From the NCBI GenBank assembly GCA_025963725.1, contig JAOQAE010000002.1, forward strand, positions 1,241,765 through 1,305,764: DNA of 64,000 nucleotides. Reading direction: 5' to 3'. The stretch is from Bacteroidota bacterium (lineage in GTDB: Bacteria; Bacteroidota; Bacteroidia; 2-12-FULL-35-15). A program made the translations under genes and the position numbers. Positions 2,139 through 52,408 of this stretch are shown here, one piece after another. The notes beneath the pieces were generated by a model. It was given only the letters and a program-made list of their open reading frames with translations. It had not been told where the DNA came from and did not search any database. Position 1 is the stretch's first letter, and every line of letters starts with the position of its first letter.

Positions 2139-3458
2139 ATGGCACAAGTAGAGTTGATCATGCCCAAAATGGGCGAAAGCGTTGCAGAGGCAACGATCAT
2201 TAAATGGCTTAAAAAAGAAGGGGATAAAATTGCGGCGGATGAAACGGTTCTCGAGATCGCTACGGATAAAGTGGATTCTGAAATACCTTCAACAGCTGAA
2301 GGCACGCTTATAAAACGCCTGTTCAACGAAGGCGATGTAGTGCAGGTTGGTAAAGCGATTGCCATCATCAGCACCGATGCGAACGCAACAGTGGAAACAG
2401 CATCACCCGAAGTTAAAGCGCCTGCCGCCAACCAGAACTCTGCAAAAGAAGTATCCGCTTCACCTGCGAAAGAGGTAGCTTCCGGAAAATTCTACTCCCC
2501 GCTCGTGCGCAACATCGCGAAGGAAGAAGGCATTTCCATGGCCGAGCTCGACAGCATTGAAGGTACCGGCGCAAACGGCCGCGTAACCAAAAACGATATT
2601 CTTGCCTATGTCCCTAACAAAGGGAAGCAAACAGCTAAGCCAGCTGAAACAGCAGCAACACAAACTCAAACACAAACATCCGTAAAGGAAACACCTGCGC
2701 CATCATCCAACGGCGCTGCTCACCAAAGGCCTGCAATTGCAGTAGGCGCCGGCGACGAGGTCATAGAGATGGACCGCATGCGCAAGCTGATTGCCGACCA
2801 CATGGTAATGAGCAAGCATACTTCCCCGCACGTTACTTCCTTCGTGGAAGCAGATGTGACCAACATCGTGCTCTGGAGGGAAAAAGTGAAAAAGAACTTC
2901 GAAAAGCGCGAAGGCGAAAAGCTCACCTTCACTCCTATCTTCATTGAAGCCCTTGTGAAAGCGATCAAGGATTTCCCGATGATCAACGTTTCCCTCGACG
3001 GCACAAAGATCATCAAGCGCAAGAACATCAACATCGGCATGGCTGCGGCACTGCCAACGGGCAACCTGATAGTTCCCGTGATCAAAAATGCGGATACGCT
3101 GAACCTTGTGGGCATCACCAAGCAGGTGAACGACCTTGCAAGTCGCGCACGCGCAGGCAAGCTGTCGCCGGACGACATACAAGGCGGCACTTACACCATC
3201 TCCAACGTAGGCTCATTCGGCAATGTGATGGGAACACCCATCATCAACCAGCCGCAGGTAGCGATCATGGCTGTAGGCGCGATCAAGAAAAAGCCTGCCG
3301 TTATTGAAACGGAGCATGGCGACCTGATCGGCATCCGTCATTTTATGTATCTGTCCCATTCCTACGATCACAGGGTGGTGGACGGCTCTTTGGGCGGACA
3401 ATTCGTGAGGCGCGTAGCCGACTATCTCGAGCAATGGGATATTAACAGGGAGTTTTAA
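2139..3458 (+). CDS. Dihydrolipoamide acyltransferase, E2 of a 2-oxo acid dehydrogenase complex
   Basis: Core subunit that passes acyl groups from lipoate to CoA in a pyruvate-, branched-chain- or 2-oxoglutarate-type dehydrogenase complex. Visible domains in order: an N-terminal lipoyl domain (about 1-78) with lipoyl lysine in ATDKVDSEIPS; a Pro/Ala-rich linker; an E3/E1-binding domain (about 115-155, FYSPLVRNIAKEEG and GTGANGRVTKNDIL); a Gln/Thr/Pro linker; and the catalytic domain ending in the HxxxDG active site (SYDHRVVDGSLGG). At 439 residues it has a single lipoyl domain. The lipoyl motif and a solo location away from E1 genes suggest a branched-chain or general E2, but substrate cannot be fixed from sequence alone. 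The next gene starts 12 bases downstream, so co-transcription is likely. Confidence 0.93.
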   Translation: MAQVELIMPKMGESVAEATIIKWLKKEGDKIAADETVLEIATDKVDSEIPSTAEGTLIKRLFNEGDVVQVGKAIAIISTDANATVETASPEVKAPAANQNSAKEVSASPAKEVASGKFYSPLVRNIAKEEGISMAELDSIEGTGANGRVTKNDILAYVPNKGKQTAKPAETAATQTQTQTSVKETPAPSSNGAAHQRPAIAVGAGDEVIEMDRMRKLIADHMVMSKHTSPHVTSFVEADVTNIVLWREKVKKNFEKREGEKLTFTPIFIEALVKAIKDFPMINVSLDGTKIIKRKNINIGMAAALPTGNLIVPVIKNADTLNLVGITKQVNDLASRARAGKLSPDDIQGGTYTISNVGSFGNVMGTPIINQPQVAIMAVGAIKKKPAVIETEHGDLIGIRHFMYLSHSYDHRVVDGSLGGQFVRRVADYLEQWDINREF

Positions 3459-3470
3459 ACAGAACCATAT

Positions 3471-5528
3471 ATGAAAAAAATCTTTCTTCAGTTATTCCTG
3501 GTCATGCTTGCATCAGGGAATCTCCTCGTGGCCAAAACCCTGCCCCTGCCCGATGGCGATTACAAAAGAATGTATGCTGATGCGGAGGTTTATTTCACCA
3601 ATGAAAATTATACGGCTGCGCTGCCGCTGTACCTGAAGCTCGATTCAATAAAAGGCAACGCTAACCTTAAGTTCAAGATCGGCTTCTGCTACCTGAACGC
3701 GGCAACGTACAAGACCAAATCCATTCCCTACCTGGAGGAAGCGATGAAAGACCTCGCGAATAAATACGAGGAAGGCGAGATCAACGAAAAGCAGGCGCCG
3801 CTCTCCACTTCGTATTACCTCGCGAAAGCATACCACCTTCATTACGATTTCGACAAAGCGATTGAAATGTACGAGCGCTACAAAAAAGACCTCGGTACAG
3901 ACCCCAAGCTGGCAGCGGATATTGCGGAGATCGATCACGACATTGAAACGTGTAAAAACGGAAAAGAGCTGATCAAAACCCCGAAGCAGGTGGTTGTCAC
4001 CAACCTCGGCGAAGGCATCAACACGCCGTATCCTGATTACTCCCCGGTAGTGTCTCTCGATGAGCAAACCCTCATTTTCACCACAAGAAGAAAAGGCGGC
4101 TACAGCGATACCAAAGAACCGAACGGGATGTATTTCGAAGACATCTTCACCTCCGATTATGCGAATGAAAAATGGGGAGCGTCAAGATCGATCGGCAGTA
4201 ACATCAACACCGGCGGGCATGAAGCAACCGTGAACCTTTCCGCAGACGGATTAAAATTACTCATCTACCGCGATAACAACGGCAACGGGAACCTTTTCCT
4301 GAGCGAATACAAGAACAAGGAATGGACGGTGCCCGAATACGTAGGCGCGCCGATCAACACCGCCTCATGGGAATCGCATGCCTGCTTCAGCGCCGATAAC
4401 CGCATCCTTTATTTTGTGAGCGACAGGCCGGGCGGGACTGGCGGCCGCGATATCTATAAATGCCTGCGCCTGCCGAACGGCGACTGGGGCCCTGCACAGA
4501 ACCTCGGGCCAACCATCAACACGCCGTATGATGAGGATGGTGTGTTCATTCACCCCGACGGCAAGCAGATCTTCTTCTCCTCCAAAGGCCACAGATCAAT
4601 GGGCGGCTTCGATATTTTCTCCTCCATCATCAATGATGAGAACGGCTACTGGTCGGAGCCAATTAACATCGGTTATCCTGTAAACACGCCGGATGATGAT
4701 GTATTTTACATCACCACAGCCGACGGCAAAAGGGCATTCTTCTCTTCCGACAAGGAAGGCGGATTTGGCGAAAAGGATATTTACATGCTCAGCTTCCCGG
4801 AATACGAGCCGCGCAACATCACCATCCTCGTGGGACGCATCATCAACAATACTACGGAAGACATCAGCAACAACCATATCGCGATCGTAAATACAAAAAC
4901 GAACGACACGCTGCAGGTGCTGAATGCAAACGGCAGCACGGGCAAATTCGGCACAAACCTCCCGGTGGGCAATACCTATAAAACTGTGTATGTGATCAAT
5001 GGGAAAGAGATCTTCAGCGAAACGCTGGATGTGCAGAAAGGCCAGGGCTACCAGGTGATCAAGCGCGAGATCCCGTACGGCGGCACCGTGGTTGTGCTCG
5101 ACAGCGCAAGGATCCGCGATTCGCTCGCAGCCTTTGCAGTATGCGATCCGGCAGCCACTTCCTTCGACCTGTATTTTGGCTACAACCAGAAATCCATCGA
5201 TGTAAAATCGAAAAAATACATGGCCTTCATTGCAGCCGTATCGAAATGCATCGGGCAAAACCCTTCCTTCGAAATTGAAGTGGAATCAAGCGCCTCCAAA
5301 GTACCGACCACCACTTACCAGAACAATGAGAACCTTGCGAAAGTAAGGGCGAAAGACGCTGCCGATAAGGTGATCGCCTCGATGGTGAAAAGCGGCATCG
5401 ACAGATCGAAGCTGCACATCAGCCAGAAAGCTTCCGTGCAAGGCCCCGAGTATAACAACGATTTCATTCAGAACAGGACCACCTACGAGCAGTACCAGTA
5501 CATTAAGATCCGCGTGAGAAAAAAATAG
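3471..5528 (+). CDS. PorE-like protein 1: TPR, PD40 propeller, degenerate OmpA-like domain
   Basis: Predicted secreted or periplasmic protein of 685 residues. A Sec signal peptide (about 1-21, no lipobox cysteine) is followed by TPR-like helices (about 30-165), then WD40-like PD40 blades (about 185-440) with repeated signatures such as LYFVSDRPGGTGGRDIY. Next come a carboxypeptidase-regulatory-like fold (about 450-545) and a C-terminal OmpA-like region (about 565-685). The last domain has lost the canonical TD..G....N peptidoglycan motif: the segment reads EVESSASKVPTTTYQNN. It keeps the KVRAKDA helix. The domain order is that of PorE, the T9SS component that links the secretion ring to peptidoglycan; assignment as PorE itself is not justified because four paralogues follow. 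It lies 12 bases after the E2 gene. Confidence 0.82.
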   Translation: MKKIFLQLFLVMLASGNLLVAKTLPLPDGDYKRMYADAEVYFTNENYTAALPLYLKLDSIKGNANLKFKIGFCYLNAATYKTKSIPYLEEAMKDLANKYEEGEINEKQAPLSTSYYLAKAYHLHYDFDKAIEMYERYKKDLGTDPKLAADIAEIDHDIETCKNGKELIKTPKQVVVTNLGEGINTPYPDYSPVVSLDEQTLIFTTRRKGGYSDTKEPNGMYFEDIFTSDYANEKWGASRSIGSNINTGGHEATVNLSADGLKLLIYRDNNGNGNLFLSEYKNKEWTVPEYVGAPINTASWESHACFSADNRILYFVSDRPGGTGGRDIYKCLRLPNGDWGPAQNLGPTINTPYDEDGVFIHPDGKQIFFSSKGHRSMGGFDIFSSIINDENGYWSEPINIGYPVNTPDDDVFYITTADGKRAFFSSDKEGGFGEKDIYMLSFPEYEPRNITILVGRIINNTTEDISNNHIAIVNTKTNDTLQVLNANGSTGKFGTNLPVGNTYKTVYVINGKEIFSETLDVQKGQGYQVIKREIPYGGTVVVLDSARIRDSLAAFAVCDPAATSFDLYFGYNQKSIDVKSKKYMAFIAAVSKCIGQNPSFEIEVESSASKVPTTTYQNNENLAKVRAKDAADKVIASMVKSGIDRSKLHISQKASVQGPEYNNDFIQNRTTYEQYQYIKIRVRKK

Positions 5529-5600
5529 GTATTCTGCCTGCTTTTTTTTAAGTTTGTTATAGCTATAAATACGAATCCTTAGTTATAACATGTATGCGCC

Positions 5601-7814
5601 ATGGATCAATTCAAAAAATTCGCCCTTATCTGCCTGGCGCTCCTGCAGGCTTTCGGCAGCTTCGCAGGCGATAACCGCTCCGGCAAGCCGGATAACCGCG
5701 TTGTAAGGAAAGCGGATAACCTTTTCATTTTCGGCGATTACAGCAATGCGCTCCCGATCTACCAGAAGCTCGCGGAAAGCAGCCCTGAGAACGCGCAGTT
5801 CAACTACCGCCTCGGCGTTTGCTATTACTATTCCGGCACCGATGTGCTCAAATGCCTGCCCTATTTCGAAAAAGCAAAAGATCGCATCAGCGCAGACAAT
5901 GAAGAAGGCATCGACCTCTACTATTACCTCGGCACCACTTACCACATGCTGAACCGCTTTGATGATGCCATTGCCTGCTATACAAAGCTGAAGGAATTCA
6001 TCCTGCCCGACAAGCAGGGACAGGAAGACATTAAGGACCTTGACAACCAGATAGCAGCCTGCCTGCGCGGGAAAGAGCTCATGCGGCATCCCGGTGCGGT
6101 AGCCATCTCCGACCTCGGAACTACGGTAAACTCAGAGTATGCCGATTACGCGCCGGTCATCACCAACGACCTGTCGATGCTCATGTTCACCTCCAAAAGA
6201 AAAGAAAGTACCGGTGGCAGGACTGACGAAGAAGGCAACTACTACGAAGATGTTTTTATTTCCCGCAGGCTGGAAGACGGCGACTGGCAGCCATCACATC
6301 GCCTTGACACAGCAGAAAACCTGAAGCATAATTTCCTGCGCTTCTCTAAATCCAAGGCCCTGGGAAACTCCATCAATACCCGTGAGCACGATGCCTCCGT
6401 GGCATTATCCCCGGATGGCAAACAGTTGTTCATTTACCGGCTCGATGATGTGTGGGTGTCGGACTACAGGAACGACAAATGGAACAAGCCTTCGCGGCTG
6501 AACAATTTCATCAATTCGAAAAAGAGCCATGAACCGAGCGTAAGCCTCAGCATGGACGAAAAAACGCTTTATTTTGTGAGCGAGCGGGAAGGCGGCTTCG
6601 GCGGAAAAGACATTTACAGGTCGGAAAAGCAAAGCGACGGCACCTGGGGAGAGCCGCATAACTTAGGCTCCACGATCAACAGCGAATACGATGAGGATGC
6701 GCCCTTCATTGATTCGGAAAATAAAACACTTTATTTTTCATCGGAAGCGCATGGCTCGATGGGCGGATTTGATGTGTTTAAGTCGAAACTGGAGAACGGC
6801 AGCTGGTCGGCGCCCGAAAACCTCGGCTACCCGGTGAACTCCGGCGCGAACGATATTTTTTATGTGTACAACGGCAAAACGAAGACAGCTTATTTTTCAA
6901 GCCTCCGCGAGGGAGGGCTCGGCAATTACGATATTTACATCGCCGACTACAATCCGAAAAAGTCCGACCGCTACATCAAAACACGCTTTGCAGTTACGCT
7001 GAACGGACAGCTGAAAAACAGCCCCACGCTCATCGAGGTAATGAATGCCGACCATTACCGCGATTCGCTGCGGCTCACCAACAGCAATTCCGACGGAGGC
7101 ATCTACAAGCCGGGAGAAACATATTTCATCACCATCACTACGCCATTATCCGGCAAATACACAACAGAGTTCAAAGTGCCTGAAAATGCAAAGGCCGAAA
7201 ATTATTACCAGGAAATTGCATTCGATGAAGTGAAGGATCAAGACGGCAGGGTTACCGGCTACAAAACCACCTTGTACAACGCATTTTTCGATGTCGACAG
7301 CGCCATCAGGAATACACCCTTTGCCGCGATGCCCGACAAAACAAAGGCATTTGCCGCGTACCTCGGCACTGTAAAAAATTCCGGCAATCCTTCGCTGAGC
7401 GCATCGGCCTACGAAGAAAAAGCGGCCGGAGCCGTTGCTGCAATGGACAACACGCCGCTGCCCACACTTGATCCAGTGCTGTTTGAGTACGGCGCAACAG
7501 AGCTCAGTCCGCAATTTATTGCAGAGATCGAAAAAGCCTGCGCTTATCTTGCGGCTAACAGATCGGCACGCCTGAAAATAATCGGCTATACCGATTCGAA
7601 AGGAGATGAAAATTACAACCAAACGCTTTCCGAACAGCGGGCGGCAAAAGCGAAAAATTATTTTACCCGTAAAGGCATTGATGCTTCGCGCATTACATTT
7701 ATCGGAAAAGGAGAAAACGATCCCGCCGCTCCGAATGAAAACCCTGATGGCACCGATAATCCGGAAGGCAGAAAGCAGAACAGGAGAGTGGAATTTATCA
7801 TCGGGCCCAGGTAG
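5601..7814 (+). CDS. PorE-like protein 2: TPR, PD40 propeller, canonical OmpA domain
   Basis: A protein of 737 residues with an N-terminal signal peptide (LICLALLQAFGSFA), TPR-like repeats beginning NLFIFGDYSNALPIYQKL, and PD40 blades (LYFVSEREGGFGGKDIY and LYFSSEAHGSMGGFDVF). A weakly conserved linker domain follows, then a full C-terminal OmpA domain. The peptidoglycan-binding signature GYTDSKGDENYN with SEQRAAKA is intact, and the tail NRRVEFIIGPR is typical. It probably anchors an envelope complex to the cell wall. It is separated from paralogue 1 by 72 bases with no clear terminator, and from paralogue 3 by 81 bases containing a strong promoter. Earlier ATGs at 5590 and 5594 are out of frame. 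Confidence 0.85.
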   Translation: MDQFKKFALICLALLQAFGSFAGDNRSGKPDNRVVRKADNLFIFGDYSNALPIYQKLAESSPENAQFNYRLGVCYYYSGTDVLKCLPYFEKAKDRISADNEEGIDLYYYLGTTYHMLNRFDDAIACYTKLKEFILPDKQGQEDIKDLDNQIAACLRGKELMRHPGAVAISDLGTTVNSEYADYAPVITNDLSMLMFTSKRKESTGGRTDEEGNYYEDVFISRRLEDGDWQPSHRLDTAENLKHNFLRFSKSKALGNSINTREHDASVALSPDGKQLFIYRLDDVWVSDYRNDKWNKPSRLNNFINSKKSHEPSVSLSMDEKTLYFVSEREGGFGGKDIYRSEKQSDGTWGEPHNLGSTINSEYDEDAPFIDSENKTLYFSSEAHGSMGGFDVFKSKLENGSWSAPENLGYPVNSGANDIFYVYNGKTKTAYFSSLREGGLGNYDIYIADYNPKKSDRYIKTRFAVTLNGQLKNSPTLIEVMNADHYRDSLRLTNSNSDGGIYKPGETYFITITTPLSGKYTTEFKVPENAKAENYYQEIAFDEVKDQDGRVTGYKTTLYNAFFDVDSAIRNTPFAAMPDKTKAFAAYLGTVKNSGNPSLSASAYEEKAAGAVAAMDNTPLPTLDPVLFEYGATELSPQFIAEIEKACAYLAANRSARLKIIGYTDSKGDENYNQTLSEQRAAKAKNYFTRKGIDASRITFIGKGENDPAAPNENPDGTDNPEGRKQNRRVEFIIGPR

Positions 7815-7841
7815 CATCCCGCCAAAATAAATGACCTAAAA

Positions 7842-7872
7842 TTTGCCACCCTATGGTAAAATCCTATATTTG
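7842..7872 (+). promoter_or_regulatory. Strong Bacteroidota promoter before PorE-like gene 3
   Basis: TTTG at 7842-7845 and TATATTTG at 7865-7872 are separated by exactly 19 bases, a full match to the TTTG-N19-TAnnTTTG pattern. Transcription would start near 7877, giving an untranslated leader of about 20 bases. Confidence 0.78.
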
Positions 7873-7895
7873 TATGTTATACCGATATTGATTAT

Positions 7896-10178
7896 ATGAA
7901 GGCAAAATTATTTTTGTTAGGATCACTGATTTGCATTTTTAATACAGTTTTTTCCCAGGGCAATAAATCCGATTACCGCGAAAATTTCACGCAGGGCAAC
8001 CTGCTGATCCTCGAGCAAAATTATCCGCTTGCGCTGAAATATTTCCTGGATGCGTATAAAATAGATTCCACCAACGCCAACATCAACTACAAGCTGGGCT
8101 TTTGCTACCTGCAATCTGCCAATGAAAAAAGCAAAGCGCTGCCCTTCCTCGAAAAGGCCGTTCAGAACGTGAGCCACAATTACAATGACCTGGAGCCAAG
8201 AGAAAAAAAAGCTCCCGAAAATGCCTATTACCTGCTCGGCATGGCATACCGCCTTGCCAACCGCTTTACCGAATCCACAGCCTATTTCAATAAGTTCAAG
8301 GACATTGTGGGCGACCGCAACAAAGAGCTCGCCGCTGATCTCAGCAAGCAGGTGGAGACCAATTTCACAGCCATCGAATTCAGCAAGGATACAACAGTAG
8401 TGAGCATCGTAAACCTCGGCGACAGTGTGAACAGCTCTTACCCTGAATACAGCCCGCTCGTTTCCGCGGATGAATCAACCCTCATCTTTACCTCCCGCAG
8501 GCCGGGCAGCACAGGGAACGATAAAACCGACAACGACCAGTTCTTTGAAGATATTTACGTGTGTACCAAGCGCGACGACGGCACCTGGTCATCGCCCAAA
8601 TCCATCGGGCTGAACATCAACACCAACGACAATGAAGCCGACATCGGGCTTTCGGCCGACGGGCAGCAGCTGTTCGTGTACCGCGGCGTGAACGGCGGCG
8701 ATATTTATTACAGTACCCTTGAGGGCGAAACATGGAGCAACCTCATTGCCATGAACGCCAACATCAATACAAAAGCATGGGAAACGCATGCAACCGTAAG
8801 CGTTGATGGCAACACGCTTTATTTTGTGAGCGACAGAAAAGAAGGCGGCTACGGCGGGCGCGATATATGGCGCTGCGTAAAGCTTCCGAACGGACAATGG
8901 AGCATGCCATTGAACCTCGGGCCGAAGATCAACACGCAATACGACGAAGATGCGCCATTCATCCACCCCGACGGCGTAACGCTGTTCTTCAGCTCCACCG
9001 GGCATAAGAACATGGGAGGCTTTGATGTGTTCAAAGCCACGAAGGACGACGAAGGAAAATGGTCGGAGCCGGAAAACCTGAAAGCCCCGATCAACACTAC
9101 CGATGATGATATTTTTTATGTGCAGTCGGTAGATGGCAAAAGAGGTTATTTATCATCCGTACGCCCCAACGGCAAAGGAGAAAAGGACATTTACATGCTC
9201 ACCTACGAGCAGAGCATTGTGGAGCCCCTCGCCCTGCTAAAGGGTTACTTAACATTTAATGGGACCACCAAAGTGCCGGCAAATGTGCAGATCATGGCTA
9301 CAGATATGGAAAGCGGGCTTGTGGTGCAGGATGTGAAGCCGAACAGCGTAACCGGAAAATACATCATGATCCTGAACCCGGGAACCGAAGGCAAAACCTA
9401 CACCCTCAGCTTTGATGCGGAAGGTTACCAGCCGGTGAACGAAACCATTACCATTCCCGCTAACTCTTCTTACCAGGAGATCAGCAAGGAGCTCCTGATG
9501 AGGGTGATCAACATGGAAAGCAAGGTGCTTGGAACCATCAGCGTAACGGGAAAGGTTGGGAATGAAGAGAACAAGCTCATCCCGGGCGTGAAGATCATCA
9601 TCAAGGACAACCTTTCCGGGAAGCTCATTGATACCTACTACACTTCTGCCGATTCGGGCTCTTATTATTTTGTGCTCAACCGCGGGCAGAACTACAACAT
9701 TTCCTACGAAGCAGACGGATACCTGTTCCAGTCGGAAAACGTGAATGTTCCAAAGCAGCCGGAGTTCTCCACGCTTACAAAGAACATCACCCTCGAAAAA
9801 GTAAAGGCCGGCGCGAAGATCGTTCTGAACAACATTTTCTTCGACTCTAACAAAGCTACGCTCAGGAAGGAATCCAACCTGGAGCTCGAAAAAGTGATCC
9901 AGCTGATGAAGGACTATCCGGAGCTGAAGATCGAGGTGGCAGGACATACCGACAGCAAAGGGAACGATGCTGCCAACCTGAAGTTGTCGCAGACGCGCTC
10001 ACAGGCAGTAGTTACAGCCCTCGCCAAGAAAGGCATCGATGCAAAGCGCCTTGTGGCGAAAGGATATGGAGAAACCGTACCGGTGGCTTCCAACACGCTT
10101 CCAAATGGCAAACCCGACCTGAAGGGAATGCAGATGAACAGGAGGGTGGAATTAAAGATCCTCGAAGCAAACAAATAG
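7896..10178 (+). CDS. PorE-like protein 3: TPR, PD40 propeller, two regulatory-like domains, canonical OmpA
   Basis: A 760-residue secreted protein: signal peptide ending near TVFSQG, TPR-like helices (about 25-150), PD40 blades (SRRPGSTGNDKTDNDQFFED, LYFVSDRKEGGYGGRDIW). Two carboxypeptidase-regulatory/Ig-like segments follow (about 440-540 and 545-640), then a standard OmpA domain with FFDSNKATL, GHTDSKGNDAANLKLSQTRS and GYGETVPVASN. The Asp and Arg expected to bind diaminopimelate are present, so peptidoglycan anchoring is likely. The N-terminal third is the closest match within the array to PorE-like protein 4 (for example TNANINYKLGFCYLQS against TANINFKLGFCYLKT), suggesting a recent duplication. 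It has its own strong promoter. Confidence 0.87.
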   Translation: MKAKLFLLGSLICIFNTVFSQGNKSDYRENFTQGNLLILEQNYPLALKYFLDAYKIDSTNANINYKLGFCYLQSANEKSKALPFLEKAVQNVSHNYNDLEPREKKAPENAYYLLGMAYRLANRFTESTAYFNKFKDIVGDRNKELAADLSKQVETNFTAIEFSKDTTVVSIVNLGDSVNSSYPEYSPLVSADESTLIFTSRRPGSTGNDKTDNDQFFEDIYVCTKRDDGTWSSPKSIGLNINTNDNEADIGLSADGQQLFVYRGVNGGDIYYSTLEGETWSNLIAMNANINTKAWETHATVSVDGNTLYFVSDRKEGGYGGRDIWRCVKLPNGQWSMPLNLGPKINTQYDEDAPFIHPDGVTLFFSSTGHKNMGGFDVFKATKDDEGKWSEPENLKAPINTTDDDIFYVQSVDGKRGYLSSVRPNGKGEKDIYMLTYEQSIVEPLALLKGYLTFNGTTKVPANVQIMATDMESGLVVQDVKPNSVTGKYIMILNPGTEGKTYTLSFDAEGYQPVNETITIPANSSYQEISKELLMRVINMESKVLGTISVTGKVGNEENKLIPGVKIIIKDNLSGKLIDTYYTSADSGSYYFVLNRGQNYNISYEADGYLFQSENVNVPKQPEFSTLTKNITLEKVKAGAKIVLNNIFFDSNKATLRKESNLELEKVIQLMKDYPELKIEVAGHTDSKGNDAANLKLSQTRSQAVVTALAKKGIDAKRLVAKGYGETVPVASNTLPNGKPDLKGMQMNRRVELKILEANK

Positions 10179-10247
10179 CCCGGAACACTCATTACCTGAT
10201 TGTTAATTACTTTTTACCTCCCCGGGGGTTTGTTGTCTATATTTTAA

Positions 10248-10255
10248 TATTTTTG
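10248..10255 (+). promoter_or_regulatory. -7 box upstream of PorE-like gene 4
   Basis: TATTTTTG matches TAnnTTTG. A TTTG at 10229-10232 is only 15 bases upstream, shorter than the usual 19, so promoter strength is uncertain. The start codon is 64 bases downstream. Confidence 0.4.
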
Positions 10256-10318
10256 CTTGATTTTTAACCACGTAAATGGTTATTTAAACTATTGAATAAC
10301 GGTATTTAACTGATTCAA

Positions 10319-12784
10319 ATGCAAAGATATACTACTCTCCTTTTCTTCTTTCTCCTCATACACTTATCAACAAATGCCCAGGACAAGGCAGGGTACCGTG
10401 AAAAATTCACAGAAGGAAATTACCTCATCCTTGAAGGCAATTACGCCCGCGCGCTGAAAGCCTTCCAGGAAGCATACCAGCTCGATTCCAGCACTGCAAA
10501 CATCAATTTCAAGCTCGGCTTCTGCTACCTGAAAACCGTTACCGAAAAAAGCAAAGCCCTGCCTTACCTTGAAAAAGCCGTTTTAAACACCACGAAGAAC
10601 TACGTTGATATGGAGCCCCGTGAAAAGGCCGCTCCTGTAAACGCCTACTACTACTACGGCGAAGCGCTTCACCTCAACTACAAGTTCGACGAGGCCATTG
10701 CCAACTATGAAAAATTCAAATCCTTCCTGAAGCCCAAACAGGTTGAAATGATCAGGGATATCGACCGCCACATCGAGATCAGCAATACAGCAAAAACATT
10801 TGTTGCCGGCCCTATCCCGGTTGTGATCACCAACCTCGGCGACAGCATCAACTCGCCTTACCCCGATTACAGCCCCGTTCTGTCGGCCGATGAAAGCACG
10901 ATCATCTTTACCTCCCGCAGGCCCGGAAGCACCGGTGGCGACAAAACCGATGAGGACCAATTCTACGAAGACATTTACATCTCTTACCGCAAGCCCGACA
11001 GCACCTGGACCATACCCGTGTCCATCAGCGCAAACGTAAACTCCATTACACACGAGGCCTCCGTGGGCTTAACCGCAGATGCACAAACATTGCTCATCTA
11101 CAAAGACGGCAACGGCGGCGATATTTATTTCAGCACGCTCGACGGGAACAACTGGACCTTTCCGCAGCAGATGGGATCCGACATTAACAGTCCGAACTGG
11201 GAAACCAGCGCCTGCTTAACCCCTGACGGGAATACGCTGTATTTTGTGAGCGACCGCAAGGAAGGCGGAATGGGCGGCAGGGACATCTGGAAATGCGTGA
11301 AATTACCGAACGGCAAATGGAGCCGCGCTGTGAACCTCGGCGCTCCTATCAATACGCCTTACGATGAGGAATCGCCCTTCATTCACCCCAGCGGAAATGT
11401 CCTCTTCTTCAGCTCGAAAGGACACCAGACCATTGGCGGCTTCGATATTTTCTTCTCCACGAGAGGCGAGAACGGCTGGGATGAGCCTTTGAATATCGGC
11501 TACCCGATCAACACCACCGACGACGATGTATTTTACGTTACCTCTCCCGATGGAAAGCGCGGGTATTACTCCTCCTCCTCCCGTGCTGAAGGCTACGGCG
11601 AAAAGGATATTTACATGATCAGTATCCCGGAAAGAAAAGAGCAGCCGCTCGTGCTCATCAAAGGGGTGATCATTCCTGCTGCAGGAACGCAGCTGCCGAA
11701 CAACCTCGAGATCGTCGCCACCAATAATGAAACAGGTATTGTTACAGGGGTTTACAAGCCGCTGATGCGCGACGGGTCTTTCACCATCATCATTCCGCCG
11801 AACAGCAATTATACGTTGTCCTACCAGCAGAACGGAGAGGAGTTCTATTCCGAGGTGATGGATGTGCCGGCTGATGCCGCTTACCAGGAGATCAACCGCG
11901 AGGTGCGCTTAAAAGGCGTCAACTTCGGCCAGCCGGTTTCGGTTGACCACAAGGACAGCACGCAAAACACGAGGCCTGGCAATACTGACAAACCCGTTAC
12001 CGACAAGCCGGTAACCAACAAGGAGATCTCGTATGTTTCCGTAGGCGGAAGGATCTTCGACAAGGACAACAAGCCGATGAACAACATGAAGGTGAACCTG
12101 ATGAATTCCGAAGGACAGATCATCGGCACAACTACCAGCGATGCGCTTGGCTGGTTCCTGTTCTCTGAGCTTCCGCAGAATGCGAATTACATAGTAGCGC
12201 TGGAAGAGGAAGACACCGAGATAGGTAAAAAATCATTTGTAGAATTCCGCGATTCGAAAGGAAACGTGATCAAAACGAAAAGCCTGGGCTCGGGCAAATT
12301 CCAGATGGCATCCAGCAATACAACCGTTAAGTTCAAGGCCAAAGCCAAATCTACCGCTTCACCAGCCACGCCTGTGGTCGCACATCACGAAGCGCTGGCA
12401 TCGGTAGACAAGCTGAACTTTAAAATGAACTTCAAATACAACGTTACGGAAACGGATGTAAATGATGAGCCTTTCAAACAGTTCATCGACAACATCATGG
12501 AGCTGTATGCAAAGAACGGCAAGGTGAGCCTGAAGATCGAATCCAGCGCATCCACAGTGCCTACCCGCTCGTACGGCGGCTCAAACAAGCAGCTTTCGAT
12601 AGCGCGCGCGGAGAAAGGAAAGGAGCAGATCCTGGCAGCCCTGAAGGACAAAGGGGCTGATCTTTCGAAGGTCACCGTTACCAGCATGAAATCGTTTGTG
12701 GGCGGCCCGCAATACAGCGTGGATTACCTGCAGAACAAAGAGCAATACGAGCGGTTCCAGTTCATTAAGATCAGCGCTTACTAA
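10319..12784 (+). CDS. PorE-like protein 4: TPR, PD40 propeller, two regulatory-like domains, degenerate OmpA-like domain
   Basis: At 821 residues this is the longest of the array. A signal peptide (to about TNAQ) precedes TPR-like repeats and PD40 blades (SRRPGSTGGDKTDEDQFYED, VSDRKEGGMGGRDIWKC). Then come a regulatory-like domain, a linker with repeated DKPVTDKPV, and a second CarboxypepD_reg-like domain (VGGRIFDKDNKPMNNMKVN). The C-terminal OmpA-like region resembles that of paralogue 1, not its closest N-terminal relative: it reads LKIESSASTVPTRSYGG and ends ERFQFIKISAY, with the Asp of the peptidoglycan site missing. It probably no longer grips peptidoglycan in the standard way. A strong terminator follows, ending the transcription unit. 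Confidence 0.85.
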   Translation: MQRYTTLLFFFLLIHLSTNAQDKAGYREKFTEGNYLILEGNYARALKAFQEAYQLDSSTANINFKLGFCYLKTVTEKSKALPYLEKAVLNTTKNYVDMEPREKAAPVNAYYYYGEALHLNYKFDEAIANYEKFKSFLKPKQVEMIRDIDRHIEISNTAKTFVAGPIPVVITNLGDSINSPYPDYSPVLSADESTIIFTSRRPGSTGGDKTDEDQFYEDIYISYRKPDSTWTIPVSISANVNSITHEASVGLTADAQTLLIYKDGNGGDIYFSTLDGNNWTFPQQMGSDINSPNWETSACLTPDGNTLYFVSDRKEGGMGGRDIWKCVKLPNGKWSRAVNLGAPINTPYDEESPFIHPSGNVLFFSSKGHQTIGGFDIFFSTRGENGWDEPLNIGYPINTTDDDVFYVTSPDGKRGYYSSSSRAEGYGEKDIYMISIPERKEQPLVLIKGVIIPAAGTQLPNNLEIVATNNETGIVTGVYKPLMRDGSFTIIIPPNSNYTLSYQQNGEEFYSEVMDVPADAAYQEINREVRLKGVNFGQPVSVDHKDSTQNTRPGNTDKPVTDKPVTNKEISYVSVGGRIFDKDNKPMNNMKVNLMNSEGQIIGTTTSDALGWFLFSELPQNANYIVALEEEDTEIGKKSFVEFRDSKGNVIKTKSLGSGKFQMASSNTTVKFKAKAKSTASPATPVVAHHEALASVDKLNFKMNFKYNVTETDVNDEPFKQFIDNIMELYAKNGKVSLKIESSASTVPTRSYGGSNKQLSIARAEKGKEQILAALKDKGADLSKVTVTSMKSFVGGPQYSVDYLQNKEQYERFQFIKISAY

Positions 12785-12798
12785 GCAGCATTATTCAG

Positions 12799-12830
12799 GC
12801 CCTCCGCATCCCGCGGAGGGCTTTTTTTTT
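12799..12830 (+). terminator. Rho-independent terminator after PorE-like gene 4
   Basis: A 9-bp GC-rich perfect stem (12799-12807 with 12813-12821), a 5-base loop, then nine Ts. Confidence 0.93.
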
Positions 12831-12909
12831 AGCAATTTCTTCAAAAGCAAAAACATTTTTTGTACTTTGGTACCAAACTTGGTTTTCCATTGAGACAAAG
12901 AACATTCGT

Positions 12910-14487
12910 GTGAAAAAGCGTATCCATAATTTTCTGTTCAGGGCATTTATTCTTTTGATTGCTTTTGCCGGCAACCACCCGGACCTTGGGGCTCAAACCA
13001 CAAAATTCATTGATCCGAGGGAAGCAAAAGAGCACTTCTCACATTATAACTTTCTGGCTGCCATCTCCGTGTACAAGCAGCTGCTCAAGCAGGAGCCCAC
13101 AAATGAAGACTACAACCACAAGCTCGGCCTCTGTTACCTCTACACCAACATCAATAAGGCCCTTGCCATCCCTTACCTCGAAACAGCAAGCAAGCAGGAT
13201 AAAGCCCCGAAGGAGGTTTGGTTCGACCTTGGCATGGCCTACCAGTATGCTGCAAAGTTTGACGATGCCATCAAAGCCTTTACAAAATACAAGGCAACTA
13301 TAACTCCCAAGGATAAGGAATACGAAAAGGTGGAGCACCAGATAGAGACCTGCAACAACGGCAAGGAATACATCAAGCATCCCGTAAACGTCACCTTCCA
13401 GAACCTCGGAAAAGAGATCAATTCCGAATATCCCGATTACTATCCTTTTGTTACGCCAACTGAATCGTTCATCGTGTTCACTTCCCGCAGGAAGGACAAC
13501 ATCGGCGGACAGGTGGAAGTGGATGGCTACTATTCTTCCGACATCTGGATGGCTACGCCCAACGGCGATGTGTGGACCAAGCCCAAGAACATGGGCGCGC
13601 TGGTGAACACCCGCTATGATGAGCAGGCTGTGGGCCTTACGCCCGACGGCAACATGATGCTGATGTACATCGATCACATCGACAGCCTCGGGAACATTTA
13701 TTCCTCCATCAGCAAGGCCGGCACCTTCCAGCGGATGAAAAAGCTGAACAGCAATGTGAACTCCGACTTTGAAACCGCAGGGTCCATCACGCCTGACGGG
13801 AATATCATCTTCTTCGCCAGCAAGCGGGAAGGCAGCCTGGGCGAAACCGACATTTACATGGCGCGCAAGCTGCCGAACGGGCTCTGGGCAATGGCGCAGA
13901 ACCTTGGCAGCGTAGTGAACACCAAGTACAAGGAAGATTTCCCGCAGATAGCGCCCGATGGCAAAACGCTTTATTTTTCATCGCAGGGACATGACGGCAT
14001 GGGCGATTTCGACCTTTTCCAGACCACCTGGAATGAAGAGGACAATACCTGGAGCACACCGAAAAACCTGGGCTACCCGATCAACTCGGCAGGCGACGAC
14101 CGCTGCATCTCCTTCACGCAGGATAACCGTGTGGCGTATCTTTCCGCTGCCCGCGACGGAGGCTTCGGCGATCTCGACATCTACAGGGTAAAGTTCAATG
14201 ATTCGGACGATAAGTTCACCGTGCTGCTTGGCTATGTAAATGCCGCCGACAGCAGCAAAAATGTTTCATCGTTCGTAACCATCAAGGACCTGAAAAATGC
14301 GGATGTGGCGGATTTCACCTACACTCCCAATCCGAAAACAGGAAAGTTCCTGATGGCGCTCCCGCCAAGCAAATACCAGATCACGATAGAAGCCGATGGC
14401 TATAAAACGCTTACCGACACCTTCTTTATTTTCGACATCGGCGTTGCACAAAACGAAAGCAAAAAAGTATATACGCTGCAAAAGTGA
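12910..14487 (+). CDS. PorE-like protein 5: TPR, PD40 propeller, regulatory-like domain, no OmpA domain
   Basis: A 525-residue secreted protein with a GTG start followed by a signal peptide (about 1-29, ending GAQ). It has TPR-like helices (FLAAISVYKQLLKQEPTNED), PD40 blades (IIFFASKREGSLGETDIYMA, LYFSSQGHDGMGDFDLF) and a C-terminal beta domain (VLLGYVNAADSSKNVSSFV to the end). Translation stops where its four upstream paralogues continue into an OmpA-like domain. I see no leftover OmpA coding sequence in the 30 bases before the next gene, so the loss is clean and not a fresh frameshift. It probably acts as a soluble periplasmic or surface propeller without wall anchoring. A terminator separates it from paralogue 4. 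Confidence 0.83.
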   Translation: MKKRIHNFLFRAFILLIAFAGNHPDLGAQTTKFIDPREAKEHFSHYNFLAAISVYKQLLKQEPTNEDYNHKLGLCYLYTNINKALAIPYLETASKQDKAPKEVWFDLGMAYQYAAKFDDAIKAFTKYKATITPKDKEYEKVEHQIETCNNGKEYIKHPVNVTFQNLGKEINSEYPDYYPFVTPTESFIVFTSRRKDNIGGQVEVDGYYSSDIWMATPNGDVWTKPKNMGALVNTRYDEQAVGLTPDGNMMLMYIDHIDSLGNIYSSISKAGTFQRMKKLNSNVNSDFETAGSITPDGNIIFFASKREGSLGETDIYMARKLPNGLWAMAQNLGSVVNTKYKEDFPQIAPDGKTLYFSSQGHDGMGDFDLFQTTWNEEDNTWSTPKNLGYPINSAGDDRCISFTQDNRVAYLSAARDGGFGDLDIYRVKFNDSDDKFTVLLGYVNAADSSKNVSSFVTIKDLKNADVADFTYTPNPKTGKFLMALPPSKYQITIEADGYKTLTDTFFIFDIGVAQNESKKVYTLQK

Positions 14488-14517: not shown

Positions 14518-15330
14518 ATGATCCAGCTGAACCTTACCCGTCCCATCGCTTTTTTCGACCTTGAAACTACGGGGGTGAATGTTGCTTCCGACAGAATCGT
14601 GGAGATCTCCATACTTAAAATTTCGCCGGATGGGACAAAGGAAATAAAGACCAAGCGGATCAACCCTACGATCCCAATTCCGCTACAGTCGTCGGAAGTG
14701 CACGGCATTTACGACAAGGATGTGGAGCACGAGCCGGTTTTCAAAGCCATCGCGAAAAGCCTCTCCGACTTTTTAAAGAACTGCGACCTTGCAGGGTACA
14801 ACTCCAACAAATTCGATATCCCCATCCTTGTGGAGGAATTTTTAAGGGCCGAAGTGGAATTCGATATTTCGAACAGGAGGTTCGTGGATGTGCAGAACAT
14901 CTTCCACCAGATGGAACAGCGCACGCTCAGGGCCGCCTATAAATTTTACTGCGGAAAAGAGATTGTGAATGCCCACAGCGCACAGGCCGATATTGAAGCC
15001 ACATACGAAGTGTTTTTGGCGCAGCTTGAAAAATACCAGGGTGTTGAATACGAAGATAAAAAAGGGAACAAGAGCTTTCCGGTGGTTAACGACATCAAGG
15101 CCCTGCACGATTTTACCAACATCAACAAGAACGCCGACCTTGCGGGAAGGATCATTTTCAACGACAAAGGCGTGGAGGTGTTCAACTTCGGAAAGCATGC
15201 CGGCAAGCCCGTTGAGCAGGTGCTGAAGGATGAGCCTTCATATTATGCATGGATGATGAACGGGGATTTTCCGCTGTACACAAAAAAAGTGCTTACCGAC
15301 ATCAAGCTGAGAATGGCGTTCAACAGGTAA
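14518..15330 (+). CDS. DnaQ-like 3'-5' exonuclease (DEDDh) with C-terminal extra domain
   Basis: A 270-residue cytosolic nuclease of the DNA polymerase III epsilon superfamily. Exo I is FFDLETTGV (metal-binding Asp14 and Glu16), Exo II is GYNSNKFDIPIL, and Exo III is AHSAQADIEAT with the His five residues before the Asp that marks the DEDDh subclass. The C-terminal 60 or so residues (FNFGKHAGKPVEQVLKDEP) form the small GKHxG-type domain seen in many Bacteroidota homologues and in DUF3820 proteins. Likely role: DNA repair or proofreading or RNA trimming; substrate not determinable. It lies 30 bases after PorE-like gene 5. Confidence 0.88.
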   Translation: MIQLNLTRPIAFFDLETTGVNVASDRIVEISILKISPDGTKEIKTKRINPTIPIPLQSSEVHGIYDKDVEHEPVFKAIAKSLSDFLKNCDLAGYNSNKFDIPILVEEFLRAEVEFDISNRRFVDVQNIFHQMEQRTLRAAYKFYCGKEIVNAHSAQADIEATYEVFLAQLEKYQGVEYEDKKGNKSFPVVNDIKALHDFTNINKNADLAGRIIFNDKGVEVFNFGKHAGKPVEQVLKDEPSYYAWMMNGDFPLYTKKVLTDIKLRMAFNR

Positions 15331-15361: not shown

Positions 15362-15967
15362 ATGAAAATCATTTGTATTGGCAGGAATTATGCTGAGCAT
15401 GCAAAGGAAATGAATGCCGCCGTTCCCACGGAACCCGTGTTTTTCCTGAAGCCCGATACGGCGCTGATCAAAGACAACCAGCCCTTTTATTATCCCGACT
15501 TTTCCAAAGAGATCCACCATGAGGTGGAGCTTGTGCTGAAGATCAGCAAGGCGGGAAAAAATATCGAGCAGGAGTTTGCGCATAAATACTATGAAGAAAT
15601 TGGCATAGGAATTGACTTTACAGCACGCGACATACAGGCAAAATGCAAAGAAAAAGGATTGCCCTGGGAAAAAGCGAAAGCCTTCGACGGCTCCGCCCCG
15701 GTGGGAAGCTTTATCAATAAAAAAGAGCTTCCCGCATCCATCGGCTTTCATTTGAATGTAAATGGAAAAACGGTGCAGAAGGGAAATACAAAAGACCTGC
15801 TCTTTTCATTTGACGCCGTTGTTGCATACGTTTCAAAGTTCTTCACCTTAAAAACAGGCGACCTGATCTACACCGGCACACCGGAAGGCGTTGGCCCGGT
15901 AGCGATCGGCGACCGTTTGGAAGCTTACCTCGAAGAGCAGAAACTATTGAGTTTTGAAATCAGGTAA
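15362..15967 (+). CDS. Fumarylacetoacetate hydrolase family protein
   Basis: A 201-residue member of the FAH fold, which hydrolyses or decarboxylates beta-keto acids using a divalent metal. Visible family signatures: IGRNYAEHAKEM near the N-terminus, PVFFLKPDTAL, the metal-binding HHEVELVLKI block, DFTARDIQAKCKEKGLPW, and the C-terminal YTGTPEGVGPV. The length fits the short single-domain acylpyruvase/oxaloacetate-decarboxylase subgroup and not full fumarylacetoacetase. It follows the exonuclease by 31 bases and precedes the DUF4197 lipoprotein by 23 bases, so the three are probably one operon. Confidence 0.9.
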   Translation: MKIICIGRNYAEHAKEMNAAVPTEPVFFLKPDTALIKDNQPFYYPDFSKEIHHEVELVLKISKAGKNIEQEFAHKYYEEIGIGIDFTARDIQAKCKEKGLPWEKAKAFDGSAPVGSFINKKELPASIGFHLNVNGKTVQKGNTKDLLFSFDAVVAYVSKFFTLKTGDLIYTGTPEGVGPVAIGDRLEAYLEEQKLLSFEIR

Positions 15968-16813: not shown

Positions 16814-16888
16814 GCGTCCGGATCAGTAAAAACTTACCATTAAAGTGGATTTTTGGCAGACGAAACGGAGCTGCATCCTTTTTTGTTC

Positions 16889-16896
16889 TATATTTG
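16889..16896 (+). promoter_or_regulatory. -7 box upstream of the giant cargo gene
   Basis: TATATTTG is a perfect TAnnTTTG match 41 bases before the preferred ATG. The nearest TTTG on the -33 side is too far away (16852-16855) for normal spacing. Confidence 0.45.
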
Positions 16897-16937
16897 ATAT
16901 CCCAAGCACAGAACAAAAAACTTATTATAATAAATAT

Positions 16938-19900
16938 ATGTTGTTTTTACGATTGAAAAAACCGCTACTCCTGGTTTGTTTTTTCGAATTATTTTTGTCC
17001 CTATCAGTTTCCTCGCAAAACGTCGGGGATTATCAAACCATAGGATCCGGCAACTGGAACAATCCGGCCATCTGGCAAAAATGCGTATCCGCCACAACAT
17101 GGGCAGGCGCAACAAATACCTTTCCTCCTGCCGCGGGAGCCACCGGTGTGATCACGATCAATAACACGCATACCATCACCATCAACCTTGCAGTTGCCAA
17201 CGGCGCAAGCATTGTTATTGCCAACGGCGGAACATTGCAAACTGCTGCAGGCATTACGCTCACCAACAATGCAAGCGGCGTGATCACGGTAAACGGCACG
17301 CTCATCAATAGCTCCACGCTTGCATCAGGAGCGATCCTTAACAACGGCGCGATCAATAACAACCTGACCTTTACAAACAACGGAACTGTAACAAATAACC
17401 TCACGCTGAACAATGCAACCGGCGCTACCATCACGCAGAACGGCACAGCATTCATCAACAACGCGGCCGGCACAGTGACCAATTTCGGGACACTTACACT
17501 ACCTGCGGCCAAAACCTTCACCAACAACGGAACGATCAGCAACTCGGGCACCATCAACAGCGGCGGCGCTTTCGGCACGCTTACCTTCGCAAGCGGCAGC
17601 TTCTACAAGCATAACTTTTCAAGCCTTGCAGCTCCGGCCGGAACAATCCCGACAGCTACCTGGAGCGTAGGCTCTACCTGCGAGATCCTCGCATGCGGTA
17701 ATTCGGGATCGGGCCCTGCGGGATTAACACAGGTATTCAAAAATTTCACCTGGAACAATACCACCCAGCCTGTGGATATTAACCTTGCAGGAACCCTTCA
17801 AACCATTAATACGGCATTTACCATGTCGTCCACCAACACCTTCAGCCTCATTCTGCGGACCACTTCCAGCGGTGCTAACACATCGGCAGGGAATTTTATA
17901 TTCAATAACGGCAAGCTGATCATCGACAACATTTTGCTGGGCGCCATTGTAAACCCCGCCTTAACAGTGGGCGGAAACTTTACGATGACCGGCGGAACGC
18001 TGATCGTCGCTAATGCATCGGGCACCGGCGCCAATAACGGGAACGGGCAGTTCACTGTTTCGGGAACCTCCACCATTTCGGGCGGCAGCGTTAATTTATC
18101 CACCAGCACCTGGGCAGGCGCAGGAGGCAACGGAACCTACAATGCAGCCGGGCTGATCACTCTTAACGGCGGCACCATCAACCTGGCCTCCAGTGTGGCA
18201 ACGGCAACATCGGGATGCAGCGGCACATTGAATGCAAATGGCGGAATCCTTATTTCATCCGGAAGCCTTGAGCTTACCACGAGCGCCGTAACAACAGGCG
18301 GCGGAAACGGCATCATGAATGTGGGCGGCGCTTTCACCCATACCGGCGGCACAGTTTCCAAAACAGGCGCAAACGCAGGAACGATCAACATCAGCGGAAG
18401 TGCGGCGCAAACCATTGAAAGCATCGGCTTTACCACAGGCCATGTGATCCCGTTCAATATTTCACAAACAGGCGCTTCGGGCACCTGCAGCATTGCAGCA
18501 ACAAAAACATTTGTGCTGAATCCCGGAACCACCTTTACAGTGGATGACAATGCGTTCGCGGCAACGGAACTTTCTGTTGACGGCACATTTACGGCAAATA
18601 CCAATGCATGGAGCTGCATTACCCCGGCCATAGCCAATTTCAATAACGGAGCCCAGTTCATCAATAATGTTGCAACGGCGATCGCTGCAAACTCCGACAT
18701 CACCTCGCTGAACTTCCTCGGAACGTCCATATTCATTGCGAATGCAAACGGCGGCGAAGTGGCAACAGCAACATGGGCCGCCACCTCTACCGTTCAGGTG
18801 AACGGCATCACCACAGCCACCACGCTGGGCAACGGCGGACAAAGCTTCGGGCAGATCTACTGGGATTGCGGAGGACAAACGGTTTCCACCGACTTCGGCA
18901 GCACAGGCTTCGGCGCGCAGGGATTGTATACGGTAAATAATACGGGCACAGGCACCCTGCGTTTCCCGGATGTAGATTTTACGCTTGGCGGGACGCCGAA
19001 TGCACTGACCGTGCAGAATGCGGCCAGGCTGCAGCTTTCCAATGACGTTAATTTATACGCGACCGGCAACCGGACGATCACCGCCATGGGCGCTGTGAGC
19101 GTGCTCAACACTGCATTTTTAACAACAGGCTCACCAAATACCGGCGCAGGCTCTTATGGCGCCGACCAAAGCAAGGATTTCACCTTATTGCTGAAAGCAA
19201 ACTTCACCTACAGCAGCGCCACTGCGCCTGTAACATTCGACCACCGCAGCTTTGCGGCCTTCGGGGATGAGTCGTACCGCCTCGTGCTTAATTTCGGCGG
19301 CACCGTGCAGGCCATCAGCTTTGCGCCTTTCGCCAGCAACCTTGTAACCATTTCGGGCGACGGCGCAGCCAACAGCGGAACGGATGATGAATTCCAGGCG
19401 AACAATATTTATACGCTCTTCGTGGCTTCCACCTCCAGCCTTTCACCTTCCACCATTTTAAAAGGAAAATATTTCCAGGTGGATGCAGGCGGATCGCTTA
19501 TTTTATCAGCCAACCTTACTCATTATGCCTTGCTGACCAGTAGCGGCGCAACCGACAACCCGGCCACTGTGATCAACGGGACCAGCACTGCCCTGTTCGG
19601 CACCATCGATTTCGGCCTCAACACCTTAACGGATGTAACAGGCACCGGCACATTCACGCTGAACAACTTCGCGAAGCTGAAAACAAAACACACAGCAGGG
19701 ATCACCAGCTCGGGGCTTACAGGCTCCGTACAGGTTACAGGCACCCGCACCTTCAGCAACGCAGGGTATTACCTTTATAACAACACCGCAGCACCACAGG
19801 TAACTGGCAACGGCCTTCCCACGAACATTACAAACACACTCGAGATCCAGACAGTTGGCGCAGGCACAGGCGGCGTTACCTTATCGCAGGGGACTTCGAT

Positions 19901-51727: not shown

Positions 51728-52408
51728 TCACTCCAAACTCCTGACTTCCGTACGGCGGTTCTTTTGCTTCCCCGCGTCCGTGGTGTTTTCCGCTACCGGC
51801 TGCGTATCGCCATATCCTTTCGCGATCACGCGGCCTGCCTCCACTCCTTTTTTCACAAGGTAAGTTCGCACGGCATTTGCGCGGTCTTCCGATAACTTCT
51901 GGTTCGCATCCTTATTCCCCACATTGTCGGTATGTCCCGCGATCTCGATCTTCAGCGATTTTTTCATCAGCATGTATTCCACCAGCTCGTTCAGCTCTTT
52001 CGAGGACTCGGGCTTCAGCGTCGATTTTCCTGTGTCGAAGAATACATTGTCGAGCGTATAGGTTTTCGGCGGACTGATGATCAGCTTGTACTCGAAGCTA
52101 ACAGTGCCTTCCATGGATGGCATTTTCAGAACATTGTAATCCTGGTTCTCGCTGAATGCCTTGTACTGCACATTGTAGGTATCGCCTTCGGGCACCAGCA
52201 GGTCGAATTTGCCATTCGCTTTTGTAACGCCGGAATATGTTTTTTTGTCCTTCGTGGCAACAAAGGTCACCTTTTCGCCTTCAAGGGGCTTCTGTGCTTT
52301 ATCAACCACCACCACGGTAAGGAGGGCCTCTGTTTCAGTTGGCTCGAGCGTTTGTGCATTTGTAATAAAAAAAGAGAGGAGCAATGCGGAAGTAAAAATA
52401 GCTTTCAT
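51728..52408 (-). CDS. OmpA-family protein with regulatory-like N-terminal domain
   Basis: 226 residues. Signal peptide ending ITNAQ, a CarboxypepD_reg-like beta domain (LTVVVVDKAQKPLEGEKVTF, TKANGKFDLLVPEGD), and a canonical OmpA peptidoglycan-binding domain (VFFDTGKSTLKPESSKELNE, GHTDNVGNKDANQKLSEDRA, GYGDTQPVAENTTD, KNRRTEV). It ties an outer or periplasmic structure to the wall. Last in the operon after the sigma factor and the small membrane protein; 5 bases from the latter. Confidence 0.92.
   Translation of the reverse strand: MKAIFTSALLLSFFITNAQTLEPTETEALLTVVVVDKAQKPLEGEKVTFVATKDKKTYSGVTKANGKFDLLVPEGDTYNVQYKAFSENQDYNVLKMPSMEGTVSFEYKLIISPPKTYTLDNVFFDTGKSTLKPESSKELNELVEYMLMKKSLKIEIAGHTDNVGNKDANQKLSEDRANAVRTYLVKKGVEAGRVIAKGYGDTQPVAENTTDAGKQKNRRTEVRSLE

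What the first reader, a model, noticed from the sequence alone, without database searches (positions are those of the whole stretch)
3471..14487. Five tandem PorE-like TPR/propeller paralogues in one array
Five consecutive same-strand genes share a signal peptide, TPR-like helices, a PD40 propeller and a beta regulatory domain. PorE is normally described as a single T9SS component, so five in a row suggests expansion into a cell-envelope scaffold with several attachment points or cargos.
Basis: partly seen in the sequence, partly recalled or inferred. Interest (0 to 1): 0.7.

Follow-up and report, generated by a model that had tools for sequence, protein, structure and literature searches.

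The report
Conserved envelope-tether gene cluster beside odhB
Five neighbouring genes encode relatives of a protein that ties the bacterial outer membrane to the cell wall; they sit at a gene cluster found in many Bacteroidia families, and two of the five carry a wall-binding domain whose key binding residue has been replaced, suggesting one scaffold made of different, specialised subunits.

Summary
The five genes are real: same strand, tightly packed, each with signal peptide, TPR helices and PD40 propeller, all under purifying selection.

They are not a PorE expansion. The genome has about 21 such propeller proteins. The best PorE match lies elsewhere (542 bits), and most PorP-linked paralogues sit with it, away from the array. 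Array monophyly is rejected (p-AU 2.9e-5). Multiple PorE-like paralogues per species were already published.

New here: the array fills an old chromosomal slot, odhB–[1–7 PorE-like genes]–DnaQ-like exonuclease–FAH. It is occupied in 25 of 29 same-genus genomes. odhB is immediately upstream in 25 of 39 loci from other families (16 of 24 families). A and D share a coherent variant OmpA domain: the diaminopimelate-binding Asp is Ser in 90 of 91 copies, while Asn and Arg are kept. All five score better against the CHU_0125 outer-membrane-integrity model than against PorE.

Best explanation: a periplasmic scaffold or tether mixing peptidoglycan-binding and non-canonical subunits. Function is inferred, not shown.

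The parts
2139..3458 (+). odhB-like E2 component of a 2-oxo acid dehydrogenase; fixed upstream neighbour of the cluster, ends 12 nt before gene A
   Evidence: NCBIfam 352.6 bits to a SucB-type E2, below the curated cut-off; immediately upstream of PorE-like genes in 25 of 39 loci from other families
3471..5528 (+). Gene A: SP-TPR-propeller-beta domain-variant OmpA (685 aa)
   Evidence: NCBIfam CHU_0125 215 bits vs PorE 176
5139..5516 (+). Variant OmpA-like domain of A (aa 557-682), motif ESSASKVPT..N..LA..RA, Asp replaced by Ser
   Evidence: OmpA-like beta-alpha-beta-alpha-beta order in the AlphaFold model
5601..7814 (+). Gene B: SP-TPR-propeller-canonical OmpA (737 aa); deep separate branch, with relatives in other families
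7437..7802 (+). Canonical OmpA domain of B (aa 613-734), GYTDSKG..N..LS..R
7896..10178 (+). Gene C: SP-TPR-propeller-CRD-canonical OmpA (760 aa); full PorE/CHU_0125-like architecture
9780..10169 (+). Canonical OmpA domain of C (aa 629-758), GHTDSKG..N..LS..R
10319..12784 (+). Gene D: SP-TPR-propeller-CRD-variant OmpA (821 aa); sister of C in the propeller tree
12383..12778 (+). Variant OmpA-like domain of D (aa 689-820), ESSASTVPT..N..LS..RA
   Evidence: 36% identical to A's, E 1.4e-19 and the only other copy in the genome; AlphaFold D model
12910..14487 (+). Gene E: SP-TPR-propeller-short beta domain, no OmpA (525 aa, GTG start); last of the array, next to exo
   Evidence: 39 of 42 proteins closest to E lack OmpA
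14518..15330 (+). DnaQ-like 3'-5' exonuclease; fixed downstream neighbour
15362..15967 (+). Fumarylacetoacetate hydrolase family gene; conserved downstream neighbour
   Evidence: NCBIfam 204.7 bits, cut-off 201

Best explanation
The locus encodes a set of periplasmic, outer-membrane-associated scaffold/tether proteins of the PorE/CHU_0125 superfamily, kept together as specialised subunits. SHOWN by sequence: shared TPR + TolB-like propeller body; canonical diaminopimelate-binding OmpA domain in B and C; a conserved variant OmpA domain in A and D that replaces the DAP-binding Asp with Ser but keeps Asn and Arg; no OmpA domain in E; purifying selection on all five; conserved slot and order odhB-A-(B)-C-D-E-exo. 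INFERRED: B and C hold peptidoglycan; A and D use the modified pocket for another ligand (altered stem peptide or a protein carboxylate); E is a body-only partner; the TPR/propeller bodies assemble with each other and/or outer-membrane barrels, so the cluster stabilises the outer membrane and retains outer-membrane proteins, as reported for CHU_0125, rather than acting as a core T9SS component.
For: Domain calls; CHU_0125 outscores PorE for all five; TolB propellers, including TolB-Pal complexes, are the top PDB folds for the A model; triad statistics over 91 variant and 109 canonical domains; variant-domain alignment; dN/dS 0.036-0.115, and 0.06-0.07 in the variant domains; slot conservation; separation from PorE and most PorP-linked paralogues; no adjacent PorP. 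Literature: the PorE C-terminal domain binds DAP through D576/N584/R591 (PMC7192894); the chu_0125 deletion gives outer-membrane leakage and 6-fold more vesicles but normal spreading (PMC5891637).
Against: No interaction, localisation or peptidoglycan-binding data for any of the five. All CHU_0125 and PorE scores are below the curated cut-offs. None of the five has a lipobox, so how they reach the outer membrane is unknown. C-terminal type changes at least 20 times on the wide tree, so subunit roles are not rigidly fixed. Copy number 1-7, one copy in G023 and an empty slot in four same-genus genomes argue against an obligate five-part complex.
Confidence: 0.55

Rival explanations
1. PorE-type T9SS accessories: each array protein pairs with one of the many PorP/SprF barrels encoded elsewhere and anchors a particular type B cargo to the wall.
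For: 22 PorP-family genes in the genome, GldL present, PorE-PorP-cargo complexes published (PMC9143113, PMC12618676).
Against: No array gene is next to PorP, while seven other paralogues are; the array lies away from PorE and most PorP-linked paralogues (one PorP-adjacent paralogue, C5_233k, falls near the array); two of five lack the canonical peptidoglycan pocket and one lacks the domain.
Confidence: 0.2
2. Functionally redundant tandem duplicates, retained for dosage or condition-specific expression, with no division of labour.
For: Tandem arrangement and variable copy number, 1-7.
Against: Orthologous classes A-E are distinct across genomes; each has its own conserved C-terminus and low dN/dS; near-identical order in another family, L153: odhB-A-B-C-C-C-D-E.
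Confidence: 0.15
3. The variant OmpA domains of A and D are decaying, non-functional remnants.
For: Loss of the DAP Asp; Pfam detection lost in D.
Against: Asn and Arg kept in all 89 alignable copies, Asp replaced specifically by Ser in 90 of 91, new invariant S/V/P/G/Q positions across many families, dN/dS 0.06-0.07.
Confidence: 0.05

Closest known systems
CHU_0125 family (NF053607), Cytophaga hutchinsonii outer-membrane-integrity protein
   Same: TPR + PD40 + OmpA_C architecture (C, B); best NCBIfam model for all five (193-317 bits)
   Different: Below the 620-bit cut-off; five genes instead of one; A and D with variant OmpA, E without; orthology to CHU_0125 itself not tested
PorE / PG1058 (NF052230), T9SS component
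   Same: TPR, beta-propeller, CRD, OmpA_C order in C; sequence kinship of all five
   Different: 165-299 bits vs cut-off 600; best PorE match elsewhere; no PorP neighbour; no lipobox; A/D lack the DAP Asp, E lacks the domain
F. johnsoniae PorE-like/PorP-like operon pairs (PMC9143113, PMC12618676)
   Same: Multiple PorE-like paralogues in one genome
   Different: Those are PorP-linked; this array is odhB-linked and PorP-free
TolB-Pal
   Same: TolB-like propeller and Pal/OmpA-type domain
   Different: Here fused in one polypeptide with TPR; a Tol system link was not tested

Membership tests
PorE (NF052230) | Score over the curated family cut-off (600 bits) | tested here: not met
   164.6-298.9 bits for A-E; the genome's best match is elsewhere at 542 bits, also below cut-off
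PorE (NF052230) | TPR + propeller + CRD + OmpA_C in one protein | tested here: inconclusive
   Met by C; B lacks a Pfam CRD; A and D have variant OmpA; E lacks OmpA
PorE (NF052230) | DAP-binding triad Asp576/Asn584/Arg591 | tested here: inconclusive
   Met in B and C, Asp missing in A and D, absent in E
PorE (NF052230) | Groups with PorE in the propeller tree | tested here: not met
   Best PorE match and most PorP-linked paralogues separate from the array
PorE (NF052230) | Lipoprotein signal | tested here: not met
   No lipobox Cys by inspection of A-E N-termini
PorE (NF052230) | Binds PorP and is needed for T9SS secretion | not testable with these tools
   Requires pull-down and deletion
CHU_0125 family (NF053607) | Score over the curated family cut-off (620 bits) | tested here: not met
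   193-316.7 bits for A-E, best NCBIfam model for each
CHU_0125 family (NF053607) | TPR + PD40 + OmpA_C | tested here: inconclusive
   B and C yes; A and D with variant OmpA; E no
CHU_0125 family (NF053607) | Outer-membrane integrity / vesiculation phenotype | not testable with these tools
   Known only for CHU_0125 (PMC5891637)
OmpA_C-like peptidoglycan-binding domain (PF00691) | Pfam match over cut-off and D/N/R triad | tested here: inconclusive
   B, C: met. A: 23.8 bits in the full protein (28.5 as an isolated domain, cut-off 27.2), Asp missing. D: no match in the full protein, Asp missing

The most novel reading that the evidence does not exclude
The odhB-linked cluster encodes an undescribed hetero-oligomeric envelope scaffold of some Bacteroidia in which one class of subunit grips peptidoglycan and another uses a repurposed OmpA pocket (SAS-x-VPT variant, Asp to Ser, Asn and Arg kept) to bind a different, still unknown ligand.
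Probability: 0.35. Interest if true: 0.68.

Novelty: new variant of a known kind. Interest (0 to 1): 0.5.

Why it matters
How the outer membrane is tethered to the wall in Bacteroidota is poorly defined. A conserved gene cluster with recognisable peptidoglycan-binding and non-canonical subunits gives concrete candidates, and the variant OmpA domain is a testable case of a wall-binding fold turned to a new ligand. It also corrects the default labelling of such proteins as 'PorE' or 'OmpA family': position (odhB slot vs PorP pair) and the binding triad separate different kinds.

Tried and rejected
(1) Array = PorE expansion: rejected by family scores, tree and absence of PorP. (2) Five genes as one exclusive clade of tandem duplicates: rejected, p-AU 2.9e-5; A+C+D as a clade not rejected, p-AU 0.349; A+C+D+E rejected, p-AU 3.5e-6. 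(3) Recent local duplication: rejected by slot conservation across families. (4) Link to the new Bacteroidota BAM subunits: BamP/BamI descriptions do not match. (5) Colony-spreading tandem genes of F. collinsii (PMC9950754): the text mentions no TPR, WD40 or PorE. (6) Whole-protein Foldseek of D gave only generic propellers and TolB; OmpA kinship of the variant rests on Pfam, profile and topology evidence.

Full report
OBSERVATION. The window (G000:C7:1241765-1305764) holds five consecutive + strand ORFs, A-E: 3471-5528, 5601-7814, 7896-10178, 10319-12784 and 12910-14487. Gaps from odhB onwards are 12, 72, 81, 140, 125 and 30 nt. All five have PD40 repeats and TPR matches, hydrophobic N-termini without a lipobox by inspection, and 32-42% identity to A. 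Against the closest relative (L061), dN/dS is 0.047, 0.115, 0.048, 0.058 and 0.036, so all are under purifying selection.

B and C end in a strong OmpA domain (E 1.8e-19 and 2.2e-20). A has a sub-threshold OmpA match (5.8e-5). D has none by Pfam, but its C-terminus matches A's at 36% identity (E 1.4e-19), and these are the only two copies in the genome. Profile comparison links the variant to canonical OmpA (hhalign probability 95.7); 26 of 39 variant domains hit Pfam OmpA weakly; the best PDB profile matches are OmpA-like/Pal/MotB domains, though weak (E 0.0046 and above). AlphaFold models of A (pLDDT 86) and D (83) show the beta-alpha-beta-alpha-beta order of that fold. E ends after its short beta domain.

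THE BINDING SITE. In PorE, DAP is held by Asp576, Asn584 and Arg591 (PMC7192894). Across the proteins collected here, canonical domains keep Asp in 106 of 109, Asn in 108 and Arg in 109. The variant domains have Ser in 90 of 91 and never Asp, yet Asn and Arg are kept in all 89 alignable copies. A second acidic position (equivalent to Asp542) is mostly Lys, 60 of 91. The variant family has its own near-invariant positions (SAS-x-VPT, N..L...R, V.GP.Y..D, YQYVKI). This points to re-tuning, not decay; which ligand is bound is unknown.

PLACE IN THE GENOME'S FAMILY. The genome has about 21 PorE-like propeller proteins. The best PorE-model match is C7:1699632-1701617 (542 bits; cut-off 600), and seven paralogues adjoin PorP/SprF genes. 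In the careful tree the PorE match and most PorP-linked paralogues are separated from the array by supported branches; one PorP-adjacent paralogue (C5_233k) falls nearer the array. C and D are sisters (100/99), E joins dispersed OmpA-less paralogues C7_150k and C5_109k (100/100), B stands apart; A-E as one clade is rejected, p-AU 2.9e-5, and A+C+D is not, p-AU 0.349. NCBIfam ranks CHU_0125 first for all five, ahead of PorE, always below cut-off.

THE SLOT. In the same genus the array lies between glyA-odhB and exo-FAH-DUF4197-like genes (the last label is mine; NCBIfam gave no match for it). I count PorE-like genes at this slot in 25 of 29 genomes (one of them, G026, on a short contig without the flanks), with 1 (G023) to 5 copies; four genomes (G006, G011, G012, G018) have odhB without them. 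A sample of 39 loci from other families of the class shows an odhB homologue (56-71% identical) within 160 nt upstream, same strand, in 25, spanning 16 of 24 families, with 1-7 PorE-like genes. L153 has odhB-A-B-C-C-C-D-E. These loci were chosen from the top matches to gene D, so the fraction is not an unbiased estimate for all PorE-like genes; the dispersed paralogues of this genome whose neighbourhoods I read had no odhB neighbour.

DISTRIBUTION OF THE VARIANT. At E <= 1e-6 it occurs in 47 of 149 sampled Bacteroidia genomes, usually once, but in only 2 of 198 genomes of a phylum-wide draw, both of the same class. It is therefore restricted to part of the class. C-terminal type changes at least 20 times on the wide tree, and C (canonical) and D (variant) are sister propellers, so domains have been exchanged or converted.

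MECHANISM. Shown: architectures, triad changes, selection, synteny, phylogeny. Inferred: B and C bind peptidoglycan; A and D bind something else; the shared TPR/TolB-like bodies bind each other or outer-membrane proteins; the cluster supports outer-membrane integrity. The nearest experimental guide is chu_0125, whose loss causes vesiculation and outer-membrane protein leakage but leaves spreading normal (PMC5891637). For PorE itself, PorP and a type B cargo are partners (PMC9143113).

LITERATURE. Multiple PG1058 homologues per species (2-13) and PorP-PorE-like operons are published. Six searches of the open-access library showed no description of the odhB-linked cluster or of the variant domain; most subscription papers are not in that library.

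VERDICT. Observation partly confirmed; PorE-expansion reading only partly supported. A new variant of a known kind, interest 0.5.

Noticed in passing
window 56050-56991 (+): PorP/SprF-family gene (202.6 bits, over the cut-off) directly after an 861-aa ORF (53426-56011) with leucine-rich-repeat-type matches; no propeller-type PorE-like gene found beside it.
   Followed up: no
window 51728-52408 (-): 226-aa protein matching only the C-terminal part of CHU_0125/PorE (CRD + OmpA), without TPR or propeller.
   Followed up: partly
window 16845-21047 (+) and 25666-27927 (-): Two proteins with T9SS type A sorting domains (TIGR04183).
   Followed up: no
L040:2758-9639 (-), own genome C7 near 543 kb: 2293-aa protein carrying a PorE-like propeller; a relative in L066.
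   Followed up: no
L114 (G027) and L112 (G025): Array with an extra A-like copy split over two ORFs or broken, suggesting copies also decay in this slot.
   Followed up: no
L073, L074, L087, L171: Another lineage carries C-like proteins with canonical OmpA and others with the variant OmpA, side by side or a few kb apart in L073, L087 and L171.
   Followed up: partly
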